Part shown: positions 1 through 12,430 of the stretch, one piece after another
Numbering within the stretch: the stretch's first letter is position 1
Layout of the letters: each line of letters starts with the position of its first letter
Source: an uncultured Verrucomicrobium sp.
GTDB taxonomy: Bacteria > Verrucomicrobiota > Verrucomicrobiia > Methylacidiphilales > GAS474
Assembly (NCBI GenBank): GCA_903889845.1
Contig: CAISZB010000456.1
Coordinates: forward strand, 1 to 17,035
DNA length: 17,035 nt
Direction of reading: 5' to 3'
The notes under the pieces: generated by a model
What the model was told of the DNA's origin: nothing
The model's database searches: none
Seen by the model: the letters and a program-made list of their open reading frames with translations, nothing else
Position numbers and translations under genes: made by a program

Positions 1-279
1 GAACGCTTCAACGAGGGCCTGGATTCGCACGAGAAGCCCGGGCGTGGGGACCGGCTCCGCTTCCCGCAGCCGGGCCCGGAGGCGGGCCTCCAGCCCCGCC
101 GGGGCGGTCCAGGCGGGGATCTGTTCCCGGATTGCGTCCCGGAGGATCCGGCGGCTTTCGAGGCGGGCGCGGCAATCGGGGCAGGCGGCCAGGTGCCCCT
201 CCAGCGCGAGGCTGGCGGAGAGGTCGAGCTCGCCGTCGAGGTAGGCGTCGAGGAGGGGAGAATGCTTTTCGCAGTTCAT
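1..279 (-). CDS. Zinc-finger anti-sigma factor (partial, 3' end outside window)
   Basis: Likely membrane or soluble anti-sigma factor that holds the ECF sigma factor encoded just upstream. The 93 visible residues start MNCEKHSPLLDAYLDGELDL and contain Cys3 and the H29-x3-C33-x2-C36 signature of the zf-HC2/ZAS anti-sigma domain. The frame stays open to the window edge, so any membrane segment and sensor part are not visible. Its ATG (277-279) overlaps the TGA stop of the sigma gene (276-278) as ATGA, which indicates translational coupling and fits the near-equal production expected of a sigma/anti-sigma pair. The zinc-finger call is seen directly; binding to the neighbouring sigma factor is inferred from the gene pairing. 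Confidence 0.85.
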   Translation of the reverse strand, partial: MNCEKHSPLLDAYLDGELDLSASLALEGHLAACPDCRARLESRRILRDAIREQIPAWTAPAGLEARLRARLREAEPVPTPGLLVRIQALVEAF

Positions 280-836
280 GCCAGGTTCTCCTTTTCTTTC
301 TTGGAAAGGGCGAGGGCGGCGTCGCGCAGGCGGTCGCGCGCCCGGGAGAGGCGGGACATGACGGTGCCGAGGGGGAGGCCGGTGACGGCGGCGACTTCCT
401 TGTAGCCGAGGCCCTCCAGGTCGCGCAGGACGATCATTTCGCGGAACTCCGGCGGCAGCGTCTCCAGCGCGCGCCGGAGCAGCCCGGCGCGGAGGGTCTG
501 CAGTTCCTTGGCCTCAGCCTCGGCGTCGCAGGAGGCGTCGGGCGGGTGGAGTTCCTCGTCGAAAGGTTCCTCGGCCTCGTGGCGGCGGCGCTTGCGGAGC
601 AGGGAGAAGCAGACATGGCGCACGATGGTCAGGAACCAGGCCTTGCCGTCGGCGCCGCGGAAGCGGGGGAAGGCCCGGTAGGCGCGGAGGAAGGCCTCCT
701 GCACGGCGTCTTCGGCGTCGCGGTCGTCGCGCAGGAGCCAGCGGGCGAGGTTGTGGGCGGCATGGCAATGGGGCATGAAAGTCTCTTCGAAAAGGGTCCG
801 GGACGCCGTCGAGGCTCCCCCTGCGCCGCTTTCCAT
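276..836 (-). CDS. ECF-family RNA polymerase sigma factor
   Basis: Alternative sigma factor of the extracytoplasmic-function class, 186 residues, directing RNA polymerase to a small regulon. Region 2 shows a PHxxAAxNLARWLLRD stretch followed by DAEDAVQEAFLRAYR and a WFLTIVRHVC core. Region 4 has LPPEFREMIVLRDLEGLGYKEVA and a helix-turn-helix with GTVMSRLSRARDRLR. The ATG at 834-836 was chosen because GGAAGGA lies just ahead of it. An in-frame ATG at 846-848 would add four residues but falls inside the conserved promoter-like element at 844-854, so it is less likely. The gene is coupled to the anti-sigma gene through an ATGA overlap and diverges from the metallophosphoesterase operon. The shared mirror-image motif between them suggests autoregulation and control of that operon. 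Confidence 0.92.
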   Translation of the reverse strand: MESGAGGASTASRTLFEETFMPHCHAAHNLARWLLRDDRDAEDAVQEAFLRAYRAFPRFRGADGKAWFLTIVRHVCFSLLRKRRRHEAEEPFDEELHPPDASCDAEAEAKELQTLRAGLLRRALETLPPEFREMIVLRDLEGLGYKEVAAVTGLPLGTVMSRLSRARDRLRDAALALSKKEKENLA

Positions 837-843
837 ACGTCCT

Positions 844-884
844 TCCATCCTATCTGTACGCTTAGGAGAGGCGTTTTATTCCCG
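844..884 (-). promoter_or_regulatory. Candidate ECF promoter for the sigma/anti-sigma operon
   Basis: Reading leftward, CGGGAATAAAA (884 to 874) is followed after 19 bases by GATAGGATGGA (854 to 844). Exactly the same two 11-base blocks occur on the opposite strand at 923-933 and 951-961. Their conservation in both outward directions, and their -35/-10-like spacing, suggest a promoter recognised by the adjacent ECF sigma factor. Transcription from here would start very close to the ATG at 836. The repeat is seen directly; promoter function is inferred. Confidence 0.5.
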
Positions 885-906
885 CGAGAGGAAACTGAGC
901 GGAAAA

Positions 907-921
907 AACTTTTCGAAAGTT
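907..921. repeat. Inverted repeat at the centre of the divergent promoter region
   Basis: AACTTT-TCG-AAAGTT is a 6-base perfect inverted repeat with a 3-base spacer. It lies close to the symmetry centre (about 903) of the divergent region, between the two outward-facing motif pairs. It could be an operator for a repressor or activator acting on both operons. On the minus strand GGAACTT (923 to 917) also matches the classic RpoE-type -35 hexamer, but no convincing -10 partner follows it. Confidence 0.35.
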
Positions 922-922
922 C

Positions 923-961
923 CGGGAATAAAAAGAGCGGGCCCGCGTTGGATAGGATGGA
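923..961 (+). promoter_or_regulatory. Candidate ECF promoter for the metallophosphoesterase operon
   Basis: CGGGAATAAAA (923-933) is followed after 17 bases by GATAGGATGGA (951-961), the same blocks that face the sigma gene on the other strand. The second block ends 48 bases before the metallophosphoesterase ATG, leaving room for a short leader with a ribosome site. The blocks are seen directly; that the neighbouring ECF sigma factor reads them is inferred. The spacer differs by two bases between the two copies. Confidence 0.5.
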
Positions 962-1009: not shown

Positions 1010-1966
1010 ATGGACAACAACAATGACACGATTCGCGAGATCAGCCGGGACGGCGTCGACCGGCGCGGCTTCCTCAAATGCATGGCCTGGACAGGCACCG
1101 GCCTCATCTGGTCGATCAACGGGGGCATCCTCAGCTCGACCGCCTTCGGCGACACCGGCGCGGCGGCGACGGCGGAATTGAACTTCGTCCAGATCAGCGA
1201 CAGCCACGTCGGTTTCAACAAGGCGGCCAACCAGGACGTGATCGGGACCTTCCAGGAGACGGTGAGGCGGATCAATGCCCTGCCTCTTGGAAAAGCACCC
1301 GAGTTCGTCCTCCACACGGGCGACCTCACCCACCTGGCCGATCCGGCCGAGTTCGACACCGTCGACCAGATCATGAAGGGGATCAAGACGCCCCAGTGCT
1401 ATTACGTGCCGGGAGAGCACGACGTCCTCAACGACAAGGGGGCGCTCTACCTCGACCGCTTCGGCAAGGGGACGGCCGGATCCGGCTGGTACAGCTTCAA
1501 CCAGAAGGGGGTCCATTTCATCGGCCTCGTCAACGTGTTCAACGACCATGAAGGCGGGATGGGCATCCTGGGCCAGGACCAGCTCGACTGGCTCAAGAAG
1601 GACCTCGCCGCCCTTGCGGCGAGCACGCCGATCGTCGTCTTCGCCCACATCCCGCTCTGGGAGGTCTACGCGCAATGGGGTTGGGGGACGACCGACGGGG
1701 CGCATGCCCTGGCCCTGCTGAAGCGCTTCGGCTCCGTGACGGTCCTCAACGGCCACATCCATCAGGCGATGCAGAAGATCGAGGGGAACATGACGTTCCA
1801 CACCGCCCGCTCCGTCGCCTTCCCCCAGCCCGCGCCGGGGACCGCGCCGAAGCCGGGCCCGATGGTCGTCCCCGTCGAGCAGTTGCGCGGGATGCTGGGT
1901 CTGACCCGGGTCTCCTACGTCGAGACCGACAGCCACCTCGCGATCGTCGACTCGACGCTCGCCTAG
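1010..1966 (+). CDS. Tat-exported calcineurin-like metallophosphoesterase
   Basis: Predicted binuclear-metal phosphoesterase of 318 residues, exported folded through the Tat system. A twin-arginine motif DRRGFLK (17-23) precedes a modest hydrophobic stretch (about 25-46). The metallophosphoesterase metal motifs follow in order: D64-x-H66, GD at 104-105, GEHD at 135-138, FAH with H213, and GHIH at 248-251. The third motif has Glu where most of the family has Asn (GNHD). GGAGAG lies 5 bases before the ATG. It is the first gene of a tight rightward operon with a DUF2231 membrane protein and a cytochrome c, which suggests a job in the periplasm. The substrate cannot be read from sequence; phosphodiesters, nucleotides or phospholipids are all possible. 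Confidence 0.9.
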   Translation: MDNNNDTIREISRDGVDRRGFLKCMAWTGTGLIWSINGGILSSTAFGDTGAAATAELNFVQISDSHVGFNKAANQDVIGTFQETVRRINALPLGKAPEFVLHTGDLTHLADPAEFDTVDQIMKGIKTPQCYYVPGEHDVLNDKGALYLDRFGKGTAGSGWYSFNQKGVHFIGLVNVFNDHEGGMGILGQDQLDWLKKDLAALAASTPIVVFAHIPLWEVYAQWGWGTTDGAHALALLKRFGSVTVLNGHIHQAMQKIEGNMTFHTARSVAFPQPAPGTAPKPGPMVVPVEQLRGMLGLTRVSYVETDSHLAIVDSTLA

Positions 1967-1969
1967 GCC

Positions 1970-2410
1970 ATGCATCCCGATCCGGCGCTTTGGACGACGC
2001 TCTGGCCGAAGCTCCACGGGGCCAGCGCCCATTTCCCGATCGCCCTCGCGCTCGTCGCGGCGGTGTGCGAGGCGGCGGCGTTTCTTCTCGGCGAGGGAAG
2101 TCGCCGCGACGGGCTGCGGGCGGCGGGCTTCTACGCCATCGCCTTCGCGGCCCTCGGCACCGTACCCGCGGTCGCCTCGGGCCTGGTGATGACGAAGGGG
2201 GAGACGCTGGGGCACGACCTCCTGTTCTGGCACCACGTCTTCGTCTGGCCCTCGTTCGCCGCGATCGTCGGGCTGGCGGTGTGGCGCGTCCTGACGGGAG
2301 AGAAGATGTCGCGCCGGGCGCAGGCCCGGTATCTCCTGGCCCTCCTCGTCACGGCGGGGCTGATCTCCGCCGCCGGGTATTGGGGCGGGGAGATGATCGT
2401 CAACGGGTGA
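1970..2410 (+). CDS. DUF2231-type four-helix membrane protein
   Basis: Inner-membrane protein of 146 residues with about four hydrophobic helices (roughly 22-40, 50-71, 86-106 and 119-138). It has conserved-looking histidines near the N-terminus in KLHGASAHFPIAL (H16, H21) and in a HDLLFWHHVFVW segment before the third helix. This pattern fits the DUF2231 family, whose members often sit beside c-type cytochromes and may bind heme through histidines. That role is a family-level guess, not shown here. The gene starts 3 bases after the metallophosphoesterase stop and ends 7 bases before the cytochrome gene, so the three genes are almost certainly co-transcribed. Confidence 0.75.
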   Translation: MHPDPALWTTLWPKLHGASAHFPIALALVAAVCEAAAFLLGEGSRRDGLRAAGFYAIAFAALGTVPAVASGLVMTKGETLGHDLLFWHHVFVWPSFAAIVGLAVWRVLTGEKMSRRAQARYLLALLVTAGLISAAGYWGGEMIVNG

Positions 2411-2417
2411 GGGAGGG

Positions 2418-2822
2418 ATGAAGCGGCCCCCTTCTTCCGCGCTGGCCCCAGCCCTGGCCCTGGCCGCAGCGCTGACGGCGCTGGGCGGTGCCTGGGTGCT
2501 GGCGTGCGGGGTGAAGGCGCTTGCGGGAGGGGCGGCCCAGGCCGTTCCGTCCTCCGCCGTTTCCGAGGCCGATCGGGTGGCGCGGGGGCAACGCTTCTAC
2601 ACGCAAAGCTGCGCCCACTGCCACGGGGAGACGGGCGACGGCCAGGGGGAGGACGGCGGGGCCGACCTCCGGGGCCTCGCCGCCAGCAATGCCCGGATCG
2701 CCAACGCCATCACGCGCGGCATCAAGGGGGAGATGCCGACGTTTCGGAAACGGTATGATCCGCAGGAGGTCTCGGCCTTGGTGGCCTATGTGCGGACGTT
2801 TACGGCGGCTGCCGCTCCGTGA
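2418..2822 (+). CDS. Small class I c-type cytochrome, membrane-anchored or lipoprotein
   Basis: Single-heme cytochrome c of 134 residues carrying electrons outside the cytoplasmic membrane. The heme site CAHCH is at 65-69, followed by GETGDGQG. The likely axial methionine is M106 in GEMPTF. The C-terminal YDPQEVSALVAYVRTF helix is typical of cytochrome c. The N-terminus is a hydrophobic segment (8-29) ending VLAC, so Cys30 could be a lipoprotein cysteine, although the segment may simply remain as an anchor. GGGAGGG directly precedes the ATG. It is the last gene of the operon and is followed by a strong terminator. Confidence 0.9.
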   Translation: MKRPPSSALAPALALAAALTALGGAWVLACGVKALAGGAAQAVPSSAVSEADRVARGQRFYTQSCAHCHGETGDGQGEDGGADLRGLAASNARIANAITRGIKGEMPTFRKRYDPQEVSALVAYVRTFTAAAAP

Positions 2823-9866: not shown

Positions 9867-11909
9867 CTATTTCTTCCGTCCCCGCCGGACGAACCAGGCC
9901 ACGCCTCCCGCGAGGGCGAGGGCGGCCAGCCAGGGGGCGAGGAAGGCGAGGGCGACGCCGATCATCCGCGCACTCCACCCCAGGGCCGCCGCGCCTTCAC
10001 CCACCGTCCGGCGGAAGAGGGCCAGGGGGCCGTTCTCGTCGGGGACCAGTTTCCCGGCGCTCCATAGGGTGAGATCGATTTCGACGGTTCGGGAGGAAAT
10101 TCCCTCGGGGGCGTCGTGCCGCTCTTCGGTGAAGTCGGTCACCTTCCCCTCGTGCCGCAACCGTTCCAGGAGGGCCGGATAGTTGTCGAGCGGGAGGCGG
10201 AGGCGGAGACCCGCGACGGCGGTGCCGTCATTGGCCCGGATGAAGTTGGAGCCCTTCACCGTCGCGCCGAAGTCGGCGGCATGGGAGCGAAGCGAGGCGG
10301 CTTGCTCCTCGACGGCGTCGGCGCGGACTTCGATCTTGAGACCGGTCCGCTGGATCGGCTCGGCCTCGGGGAGGAGGCGGACCTCGAAGCGGACGGGAGC
10401 CTTTGCGTCGGTGCCGGAATCGTTCCGGGTAAAGGCGGCAACCGGGCCGACGGCGCGGACGACGGCCTCGGCTGCCTCGGCCTGTTCCGAGGGGACGCGA
10501 AAGGCGAGGACGGCCTCCGAGGTGGGGGCGGGGGTTGCGTCGGAGCCCTGCTTTTCGAGGTGGATATTGAGGATCTGCACGTCGGGCGCGGCGGCAGTCA
10601 GCGCGGTCTGCAACCGCCCGAGCGCCACGGGGACGTCGCCCCCGGGGGCCAGGAGGGAAAGGGAAAGGACGGCCCGGTCGGCCTGACTTTGCGAGAGGTC
10701 CCGCTCGCGGAGTTGGAAGGTGACCGTGGCGTAACGCACCTGGGCATCGCTGAGGCGGATTTCGGCCTCCATCGTCTCGATGTCGGCGCGGACGCGGCCC
10801 AGTTCCCGCTCCACCTGGAGCAGGTCGCTGACCTTGCCGTCCTTCTCGGCGAGCATCTTCACCAGGCGTCCCTCCATCACTCGCGCGTTGGCGAGGCGGG
10901 CCGTCGTGTCGGCGTAGGCCTTGGAGATGTCCTCCGCCCCGACGTTTCGGTTCTTCACCTCGCCGAGGAGAGCCGTTTGGGTGAGGAAGGCGTCGAGCTT
11001 CTCCGGGGCGACCTTCACGACGAGCGTGCCGGAAAGCTTCCCGTTCGGCCCCCGGACCTGGCTCTGCGTGTCGATGAATCCACCCGCCTCCGCCGCGGCG
11101 GAGGCGATCCCGGCGACGGCCTTGTCGAAGGCCGGGACGATCATTTCGACCATGCCGCGACGGACGATTTTCTTTAACTCGTCGGAGGCAGGGGCGGGTT
11201 CTTTGGCGGCCATGGGAGCGGCGGCGGCGATGGCTCCAATATCGGAGAAGCGGACGGAAGAGGAGTCGGAAAAGCTTCCCCCCTTTGAGGAGACGGGGTT
11301 CTCCATCCTAGACATGGCAGTCCCGGTGAAGGTGGGGGTATTCTGGAAAACATTTCCTTGTGCTTGCGCGCTTGCCGGGGCGGGGGTGGCAGGGGCCGCA
11401 TCGAGATTCGGGAGATCGCCCACATCCGACGGCGTGCTGTAGGCAGTTCGGGAACGAAAAGACCCTCCGTTCTCCGTTCTTTTTGTTCCTGGAAACGGCT
11501 CATGAGTCAGCATCGCCCCTGTGACGACGAGGGCGGCAATCCCGGCCAGCGCCCCGCCGTAGCGGAAGGCGGGAAGGGCGAAGGCCCGTCCGATCCCGAC
11601 TGCAAGCCAGGAGAGCGTCCACGGTCTGGAGGGAGGAGTGACTTCCTCCGATTCGATTTCCTCCGCCTCCTCGCGAAAGCGGGAGAGGAGGCGATCCTCC
11701 AAGGCGGCGTCGGGACGATGGGTTTCGAGGGTGGTTTTCAGGAGGGTGCTCATGGCGTGGTGTTCGGTGGCGATCCGGCGGCAGGCGGGGCAGGCGGCGA
11801 GGTGGAGGTCGAGGGCTTCCCGTTCGGCGGGAGCGAGCGCATCGGCCTCGGCCAACGCGAGCCATTCGTCGATCTGGTGGTGGAGGGTGGCGGCGGAAGG
11901 GGTCTTCAT
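9867..11909 (-). CDS. Membrane anti-sigma factor fused to a DUF4349 sensor region
   Basis: A 680-residue protein that probably holds the upstream ECF sigma factor and senses the envelope. The cytoplasmic N-terminus carries the anti-sigma zinc finger H36-x3-C40-x2-C43. A membrane helix (about 117-135) and a low-complexity Ala/Pro/Ser linker (about 136-240) follow. The DUF4349 region runs from about 242 to 410 (IVRRGMVEMIVPAFDKA, AGGFIDTQSQ, LVVKVAPEKLDAF, then a coiled-coil-like ARLANARVMEGRLVKML with VERELGRVRADIE). Two further stretches, about 425-500 and 524-600, look like diverged copies of its first module. A second membrane helix (about 648-672) ends in RRGRKK, placing the C-terminus inside. 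Its ATG overlaps the sigma stop as ATGA. The signal it detects is unknown. Confidence 0.87.
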   Translation of the reverse strand: MKTPSAATLHHQIDEWLALAEADALAPAEREALDLHLAACPACRRIATEHHAMSTLLKTTLETHRPDAALEDRLLSRFREEAEEIESEEVTPPSRPWTLSWLAVGIGRAFALPAFRYGGALAGIAALVVTGAMLTHEPFPGTKRTENGGSFRSRTAYSTPSDVGDLPNLDAAPATPAPASAQAQGNVFQNTPTFTGTAMSRMENPVSSKGGSFSDSSSVRFSDIGAIAAAAPMAAKEPAPASDELKKIVRRGMVEMIVPAFDKAVAGIASAAAEAGGFIDTQSQVRGPNGKLSGTLVVKVAPEKLDAFLTQTALLGEVKNRNVGAEDISKAYADTTARLANARVMEGRLVKMLAEKDGKVSDLLQVERELGRVRADIETMEAEIRLSDAQVRYATVTFQLRERDLSQSQADRAVLSLSLLAPGGDVPVALGRLQTALTAAAPDVQILNIHLEKQGSDATPAPTSEAVLAFRVPSEQAEAAEAVVRAVGPVAAFTRNDSGTDAKAPVRFEVRLLPEAEPIQRTGLKIEVRADAVEEQAASLRSHAADFGATVKGSNFIRANDGTAVAGLRLRLPLDNYPALLERLRHEGKVTDFTEERHDAPEGISSRTVEIDLTLWSAGKLVPDENGPLALFRRTVGEGAAALGWSARMIGVALAFLAPWLAALALAGGVAWFVRRGRKK

Positions 11910-12430
11910 GGCAGGAGGGAGGGAAGGAGGGCGGCTTCCCGGCGGAGGGTTTCCATGGCGCGGCCCAGGATGCCGCGCAGGGCCCCGTGGCTGAGGCCCA
12001 TGTGGTCGGCGATGCCCTGGTAGTCCATCCCCTCCATGAAGCGGAGGGTGACGGCGAGGCGGTGATTCTCCGGCAGGGCGGCGAGGAGGGCATCGACCTG
12101 TTGGGTCTGTTCCCGGGCTTCCAGGTCGGAGGCTGGGGAGGGGGCTACGGGATCGGCGTGGTGGTCGCCCGCTTCTTCGGAGAAGGGGCGGCGGCGGGAG
12201 CGGCGCAGGCGGTCGATGGCCCCGTTCCGGGTCAGCGCGGAGAGCCAGGCGGGGAGTTTCTCCGTTGGCGGCAGGCGGCGGCCTTCCCGGTGGGTCTTGT
12301 AGGCCTTGAGGAAGGTTTCCTGGACAACGTCTTCCGCCTCGGCCCCGTCCTGCAGGACGGCGTAGGCGACGGCGTGGAGCCGCCGCCCGTGCTCCCGGAT
12401 CAGGGTTTCAAAGAGGGCGTGGGCATCCAT
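11906..12430 (-). CDS. ECF-family RNA polymerase sigma factor
   Basis: Second ECF sigma factor of the window, 174 residues. Region 2 shows YAVLQDGAEAEDVVQETFLKAYK and AWLSALTRNGAIDRLRRSRRR. Region 4 shows LPENHRLAVTLRFMEGMDYQGIA and the helix-turn-helix LSHGALRGILGRAMETLRRE. It is only distantly similar to the sigma factor at 276-836, so the two should have different targets. The stop overlaps the start of the DUF4349 anti-sigma gene by ATGA. No Shine-Dalgarno sequence precedes the ATG, and the promoter motif found at the first sigma gene is absent here. It lies downstream of glnA but behind a strong terminator, so it is probably a separate unit. Confidence 0.92.
   Translation of the reverse strand: MDAHALFETLIREHGRRLHAVAYAVLQDGAEAEDVVQETFLKAYKTHREGRRLPPTEKLPAWLSALTRNGAIDRLRRSRRRPFSEEAGDHHADPVAPSPASDLEAREQTQQVDALLAALPENHRLAVTLRFMEGMDYQGIADHMGLSHGALRGILGRAMETLRREAALLPSLLP

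What the first reader, a model, noticed from the sequence alone, without database searches (positions are those of the whole stretch)
844..961. Mirror-image divergent promoter shared by an ECF sigma operon and an exported-protein operon
Both 11-base blocks, CGGGAATAAAA and GATAGGATGGA, occur once on each strand facing outward (884-874 with 854-844; 923-933 with 951-961), symmetric about position 903. Two identical blocks with -35/-10-like spacing on both sides of one intergenic region are unlikely by chance. The simplest reading is that the sigma factor at 276-836 recognises this motif, drives its own operon and drives the metallophosphoesterase-DUF2231-cytochrome c operon. The spacer differs (17 versus 19 bases), which could make one side weaker.
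Basis: partly seen in the sequence, partly recalled or inferred. Interest (0 to 1): 0.72.

Follow-up and report, generated by a model that had tools for sequence, protein, structure and literature searches.

The report
Paired back-to-back ECF sigma factor promoters
A stress-type sigma factor in a verrucomicrobial bacterium sits back-to-back with an exported phosphoesterase operon, and both appear to be switched on by the same sigma-specific promoter; the arrangement recurs in other phyla, where the gap between the two promoters tends to change by about whole turns of the DNA helix.

Summary
Block A is the -35 of an ECF26-type promoter (published consensus GGAATA / GT). Block B is not the -10: no exact copy occurs in 86 other intergenic regions, and the conserved -10 is a GT 17-18 nt after GGAAT (859-858 on -, 947-948 on +). 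B covers the predicted start site and, on the minus strand, the sigma's first codons. Of 87 loci with the sigma divergent from the metallophosphoesterase (MPE), 79 carry both promoters. Where the sigma is not adjacent, the MPE-side motif and a long anti-sigma match agree, both present or both absent, in 22 of 24 genomes. One sigma driving its own operon and the MPE-DUF2231-cytochrome c operon is thus well supported by comparison, but untested by experiment. Exploratory: -35 to -35 distances favour steps of about one helical turn (48 of 51 loci); the rule, frozen, held in 11 of 14 further loci (p = 0.03). The window (43 bp) narrowly breaks it.

The parts
874..884 (-). -35 block of the sigma-operon promoter (GGAAT at 882-878)
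   Evidence: GGAAT on this strand in 51 of 54 loci
858..859 (-). -10 element GT of the sigma-operon promoter, 18 nt after GGAAT
   Evidence: GT at offset 18 in 42 and at 17 in 8 of 51 minus arms; ECF26 consensus -10 GT (PMC6180224)
844..854 (-). block B: predicted initially transcribed region; its ATG (848-846) is a sigma start codon, predicted TSS at about 848
   Evidence: TSS rule (12th-13th base counted from the G of GT) read from Table 1 of PMC6180224
923..933 (+). -35 block of the metallophosphoesterase-operon promoter (GGAAT at 925-929)
   Evidence: GGAAT on this strand in 53 of 54 loci
947..948 (+). -10 element GT of the metallophosphoesterase promoter, 17 nt after GGAAT
   Evidence: GT at offset 18 in 40 and at 17 in 10 of 53 plus arms
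951..961 (+). block B copy: predicted initially transcribed region, TSS at about 958
   Evidence: not conserved in relatives
903..913 (.). A/T tract between the two -35 elements, possible shared upstream element
   Evidence: sequence; A+T peaks between the -35s in the 22-27 and 33-37 bp classes
276..848 (-). ECF sigma factor (190 aa from the ATG at 848)
   Evidence: Sigma70_r2, Sigma70_r4_2
1..279 (-). anti-sigma factor, cut by the contig end; a matching C-terminal part is at G000:C160:50-529
   Evidence: (zf-HC2)
1010..1966 (+). metallophosphoesterase, probably exported: twin-arginine-like start (DRRGFLK) and a GEHD motif
1970..2410 (+). DUF2231 membrane protein
2418..2822 (+). cytochrome c (cbb3 subunit III-like domain, CAHCH)

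Best explanation
844-961 holds two back-to-back promoters for the ECF sigma factor encoded at 276-848. Each is GGGAATAAA (-35), with GT (-10) 17-18 nt after GGAAT, and transcription starting about 11 nt past the G of GT. When the anti-sigma factor lets the sigma go, the sigma makes more of itself and its anti-sigma factor (leftward) and turns on the metallophosphoesterase, the DUF2231 protein and the cytochrome c (rightward). The leftward mRNA starts at or within a base or two of the sigma start codon (leaderless). Shown by comparison: the promoter elements, their conservation, and their link to both genes. Inferred: recognition by this sigma, release from the anti-sigma factor, start sites, leaderless mRNA. 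Unknown: the signal and the enzyme's substrate.
For: The published ECF26 consensus is -35 GGAATA / -10 GT, and the listed S. meliloti rpoE1-operon promoter has GGAAT-N18-GT. 79 of 87 divergent loci carry both promoters; GT offsets in 58 non-redundant loci are (18,18) 47, (17,17) 6, mixed 5. In a later set, 17 of 21 divergent loci carried both. Motif counts: 157 in 23,994 bp of intergenic DNA against 0 in 76,560 bp of MPE coding DNA. In scan loci without a divergent sigma the motif lies within 100 bp upstream of MPE in 12 of 14 non-Bacteroidetes and 0 of 10 Bacteroidetes (5 of 29 too short to judge); a long anti-sigma match (E up to 1e-20, cut-off chosen after seeing the values) is in 12 of the same 14 genomes and 0 of the same 10; the two agree in 22 of 24. 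All 8 MPE-bearing Verrucomicrobiota genomes have the anti-sigma factor (7, G392), and all 7 anti-sigma genomes of 288 are MPE-bearing. Strict GGGAATAAA-N14/15-GT sites: 2 of 2 in G000 and 2 of 3 in the single-contig G002 lie here. The sigma matches S. meliloti RpoE6, an ECF26 member (36% identity over 135 aa).
Against: No transcript data. 8 of 87 loci, and 4 of 21 later ones, lack one or both arms under the strict rule; Gemmatirosa has both -35s but no GT at 17-18. L060 has the motif without a long anti-sigma match, L075 the reverse. G003 and G036 have strict sites elsewhere (4 of 6 and 1 of 3), and the reversed-pattern control gave as many as 4 hits in G002, so regulon size is not settled. 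Another ECF sigma could read the sites; the window has a second one at 11906-12430. Start codons that fit a leaderless mRNA are found in only 19 of 58 loci.
Confidence: 0.88

Rival explanations
1. One reading: block A is the -35 and block B the -10 recognised by the sigma.
For: Both blocks are exact on both strands; B occurs nowhere else in G000; two such pairs are very unlikely by chance.
Against: B is exact in 1 of 87 intergenic regions, while a GT just upstream of it is conserved at fixed spacing. On the minus strand B overlaps a start codon that sister L002 also has there (ATGGAAGG).
Confidence: 0.05
2. Block B is a second feature: a copy made by template switching between the two inverted arms, or a shared site for another regulator.
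For: The within-locus 11-base match in L001 is an outlier; the next best of 58 loci is 6. The likeness runs from GCGT through GGATGGA with small differences (by eye).
Against: Across loci the excess of within-locus likeness is slight (p = 0.019, with L001 itself the largest value), so there is no sign of general arm-to-arm copying. No second regulator is known here.
Confidence: 0.4
3. The two promoters are read by the housekeeping sigma or by a different ECF sigma, and the shared motif is coincidental.
For: No transcript data exist here.
Against: The motif matches ECF26 promoters and not the recalled TTGACA/TATAAT consensus; its presence agrees with that of the anti-sigma gene in 22 of 24 genomes.
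Confidence: 0.07

Closest known systems
ECF26 sigma factors RpoE1/RpoE4/RpoE6 of Sinorhizobium meliloti (PMC6180224, PMC3511301; passages seen)
   Same: -35 GGAATA, -10 GT, same spacing, own operon autoregulated (RpoE1), anti-sigma gene downstream, few targets, a cytochrome c-like target (RpoE4); rpoE6 is divergent from a serine protease gene.
   Different: The target here is a metallophosphoesterase-DUF2231-cytochrome c operon rather than sulfite oxidase; our anti-sigma query found no match in the pSymA stretch that holds ecfR6 (E up to 1e-3).
ThnR-activated close divergent promoters (PMC4834489; search listing and start of abstract only)
   Same: Two close divergent promoters whose output rises when both are together.
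   Different: That pair is activated by a LysR-type protein, not described as read by an ECF sigma.
PDB 2zo9 phosphohydrolase (GpdQ, name recalled) and Rv0805 (2hy1)
   Same: Metallophosphoesterase likeness by sequence (E = 3.3e-07 and 5.9e-04).
   Different: The present family has GEHD where 2zo9 has GNHD (135 of 135 readable of 138 loci), and 122 of the 135 carry DRRGF near the start.

Membership tests
ECF26 sigma factor / promoter | Promoter consensus -35 GGAATA, -10 GT | tested here: met
   against the consensus
ECF26 sigma factor / promoter | Sigma with regions 2 and 4, next to an anti-sigma gene | tested here: met
ECF26 sigma factor / promoter | Assignment by the ECF group profiles (ECF classification) | not testable with these tools
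   No library here holds ECF group models; the best NCBIfam hit, PRK12533, is below its cut-off (168.7 against 248 bits)
ECF26 sigma factor / promoter | Sequence likeness to a named ECF26 member | tested here: inconclusive
   36% identity over 135 aa to RpoE6; named members of other groups not compared
ECF26 sigma factor / promoter | COG5662-type anti-sigma factor with membrane segment | tested here: inconclusive
   zf-HC2 found in the window and L002; COG5662 and the membrane segment not scored
Class III phosphodiesterase (GpdQ/Rv0805 type) | Metal-binding motifs D-x-H, GD, GNHD, GHxH (recalled) | tested here: not met
   D-x-H, GD and GHxH are invariant in the 4-row alignment; N of GNHD is E in 135 of 135 readable of 138 loci

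The most novel reading that the evidence does not exclude
The two promoters of the pair are held in helical phase: across bacteria their -35 elements stand mostly near 5, 15, 25, 36, 46 or 56 bp apart, so evolution changes the gap by about whole DNA turns. A possible reason is that both polymerases use the same A/T-rich minor-groove contacts between them (shared alpha-CTD sites), coupling sigma autoregulation to target output. The window, at 43 bp and out of step with its sister (37 bp), is a near-exception.
Probability: 0.55. Interest if true: 0.68.

Novelty: new variant of a known kind. Interest (0 to 1): 0.5.

Why it matters
It gives a sparsely studied lineage a regulator-target pair that can be tested in a laboratory host, extends ECF26-type promoters to loci labelled Verrucomicrobia and Acidobacteria, and ties an uncharacterised phosphoesterase family to a dedicated sigma factor. 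If the helical phasing holds, these back-to-back promoters are coupled through the DNA between them, which can be tested by adding half or whole turns.

Tried and rejected
Block B as -10: rejected by conservation. General copying between the two arms: only a slight excess across 58 loci, with the window itself the largest value. Regulon size: with GGGAATAAA-N14/15-GT, sites outside this locus are 0 of 2 in G000, 1 of 3 in G002 (in coding sequence by eye), 4 of 6 in G003 and 1 of 3 in G036 (last two not examined further); the reversed-pattern control for the wider N14-17 pattern gave 0, 4, 3 and 1 hits. L209, with a second inverted TTATTCC/GGAATAA pair, lies between an rpoA-like ORF and the end of another ORF, so it was not taken as an ECF pair; L208 looks alike by eye. 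A phasing test on anti-sigma loci without MPE was not possible in the 288 Verrucomicrobiota genomes: the 7 with the anti-sigma factor all had MPE (at most 9 candidates scored per genome, so misses are possible). A first shuffle count mixed in palindromes and was replaced. Leaderless sigma mRNA as a general rule: only 19 of 58 loci. Literature searches: among the listed titles and abstracts (12 of 21 listed) I saw none on this MPE-DUF2231 locus or on helically phased ECF promoters; the library lacks most subscription journals.

Full report
What is there. The window is contig C456 of a fragmented genome (593 contigs). One relative in the same order, G036, has a contig of the same length (32,009) as a record named Candidatus Methylacidiphilales, so the window is taken to be Methylacidiphilales, Verrucomicrobiota (inferred). 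Leftward: an ECF sigma (276-848) and an anti-sigma factor cut by the contig end (1-279; a matching C-terminal part is at G000:C160:50-529). Rightward: metallophosphoesterase (MPE), DUF2231 protein, cytochrome c. The blocks are exactly as reported.

Chance. At least two inverted 11-mer pairs turned up in 8 of 100,000 first-order Markov sequences of the region, at least one in 915.

Relatives. L002 (same genus; MPE 85% identical), L003 (the same place as L034) and L004 (same order) have the same divergent arrangement. All keep an outward GGGAATAAA on both strands; none has block B in the intergenic region with up to 2 mismatches. A genome scan with the MPE alignment kept 80 loci, from records labelled Verrucomicrobia, Acidobacteria, Planctomycetaceae, Bacteroidetes and others (more existed). 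51 of the 80, with L001, L002 and L004 making 54, have an ECF sigma divergent from MPE within 1.2 kb; GGAAT faces outward on both strands in 50 of 54. GT follows GGAAT at 18 nt in 40 of 53 plus arms and 42 of 51 minus arms, at 17 nt in 10 and 8; any other offset shows 0-8. With further Verrucomicrobiota and plasmid loci there are 138 loci, 87 divergent, 79 with both complete promoters, 58 non-redundant. In all 87 regions block B is exact only in the window; 5 others have one copy with 2 mismatches.

Controls. GGAATA-N16/17-GT occurs 157 times (both strands) in 23,994 bp of these intergenic regions and 0 times in 76,560 bp of MPE coding DNA. Of 29 scan loci without a divergent sigma, 5 were too short; of the rest, the motif lies within 100 bp upstream of MPE in 12 of 14 non-Bacteroidetes and 0 of 10 Bacteroidetes loci (labels; misses L075 and L090). 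Searching those 24 whole genomes with the anti-sigma alignment, a long match (E up to 1e-20, a cut-off set after seeing the values) was found in 12 of the 14 and 0 of the 10, where the best was 7.6e-10 over the N-terminal part. Motif and anti-sigma gene agree in 22 of 24; L060 has the motif without the gene, L075 the gene without the motif. In Burkholderia stagnalis the MPE lies elsewhere and still has its own copy of the motif. Of 288 Verrucomicrobiota genomes, 7 had the anti-sigma factor, all MPE-bearing; the eighth MPE-bearing genome, G392, has it too.

Identity of the motif. PMC6180224 (passages seen) gives the ECF26 consensus -35 GGAATA / -10 GT, and lists the promoter of the rpoE1 operon as GCCGGGAATAAATCCATAGCCCTCCGTGTCTTATCCTCG. 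Reading the last base of the listed sequences as the start site (it is lower case, the mark for a start found by both methods, in several), the start is the 12th-13th base counted from the G of GT. In the window this predicts 848 (-), the A of an in-frame sigma ATG, and about 958 (+). PMC3511301 (passages) reports RpoE1/RpoE4 as sulfite-responsive with few targets. The window sigma is 36% identical to S. meliloti RpoE6 over 135 aa. Membership of ECF26 could not be scored.

Start of the sigma gene. In 19 of 58 non-redundant loci an in-frame start codon lies 9-16 nt past the G of GT, in 13 of them at 12 or 13; in 10 of the 19 no other start was listed between there and the first aligned residue (my counts from the listing; the window has a further ATG at 836). 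This predicts a leaderless mRNA. In several other loci the same spot starts a short reading frame (ATGATTGAAAG... in Chthoniobacterales-like loci) that overlaps the sigma start about 20 nt further on (read by eye).

Block B. It begins 4-5 nt after the G of GT and covers the predicted start region. On the minus strand its ATGGA is the sigma's Met-Glu, kept in L002. Its exact repeat on the plus strand is peculiar to this genome. Whether a local copying event or selection made it is open.

Helical phasing (found after looking, so exploratory). Distances between the first G of the two GGAAT elements, in non-redundant loci with distance up to 100 bp (n = 51; 7 loci with 147-641 bp left out): 3, 5, 5, 13; 22-27 (20 loci); 33, 33, 36 x7, 37 x3; 43, 43, 45, 46, 46, 48; 55-57 (8); 96. 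The Rayleigh measure is highest near period 10.3 (R = 0.71); 48 of 51 lie within 2.6 bp of one phase where about half would by chance; the exceptions are L001 (the window, 43), L089 (43) and L068 (22); without the two largest clades R is 0.67. Taking one locus per sigma cluster: at 65% identity, 22 clusters, R(10.5) = 0.677, p = 0.00025 against a smoothed null (the floor of 4,000 draws), p = 0.0007 when the best period from 8 to 13 is allowed; at 60% only 6 clusters remain and p = 0.06 and 0.13. Within clades the gap often changes by near-whole turns (27, 36-37, 48; 57 against 27; 55 against 3), but L001 against L002 (43 against 37) does not.

Tests of that rule. Written down before fetching 8 plasmid loci, it met one qualifying pair, in phase (L219, 16 bp). 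Loci fetched earlier gave 56 (L115, seen before the rule) and 36 (L118), in phase. Pairs lacking GT on an arm: 33 (L220), 89 (L224) and 25 (L132) fit, 9 (L117) does not. A+T content peaks in the gap, at about 11-15 bp from each -35 in the 22-27 bp class and at about 14 and 22 bp in the 33-37 bp class, less clearly in wider gaps. A shared set of alpha-CTD contacts is my inference; that such contacts lie near -42 and -52 is recalled.

Function. The operon's enzyme is distantly related to 2zo9 (GpdQ, recalled name) and Rv0805 but has Glu in place of the Asn of GNHD in all 135 readable of 138 loci; that this Asn binds metal is recalled. The signal and substrate remain unknown.

Verdict. The pair belongs to a module conserved beyond this phylum, and its spacing rule is the part most worth testing.

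Noticed in passing
window 1010-1966 (residues 135-138): The metallophosphoesterase family has GEHD where 2zo9 has GNHD: Glu replaces the Asn in 135 of 135 readable of 138 loci, and also in the Burkholderia and Streptomyces plasmid homologues looked at.
   Followed up: partly
L047, L049, L051, L180 and L057, L061, L064 (minus arm): A short reading frame starting at the predicted transcription start overlaps the sigma start codon, in some as ATGA or GTGA, suggesting translational coupling (by eye).
   Followed up: partly
window 9867-12430: A second ECF sigma (11906-12430) is followed by a protein with a zf-HC2 anti-sigma domain and DUF4349.
   Followed up: no
L098 (Mucilaginibacter sp. SMC90): In this Bacteroidetes locus, without the motif or a nearby sigma match, the same phosphoesterase is followed by a YceI protein and, further on, a histidine kinase and a LytTR regulator.
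   Followed up: no
G000:C160:50-529: The missing C-terminal part of the window's anti-sigma factor appears to be at the end of another contig, so C160 probably adjoins the left end of the window.
   Followed up: no
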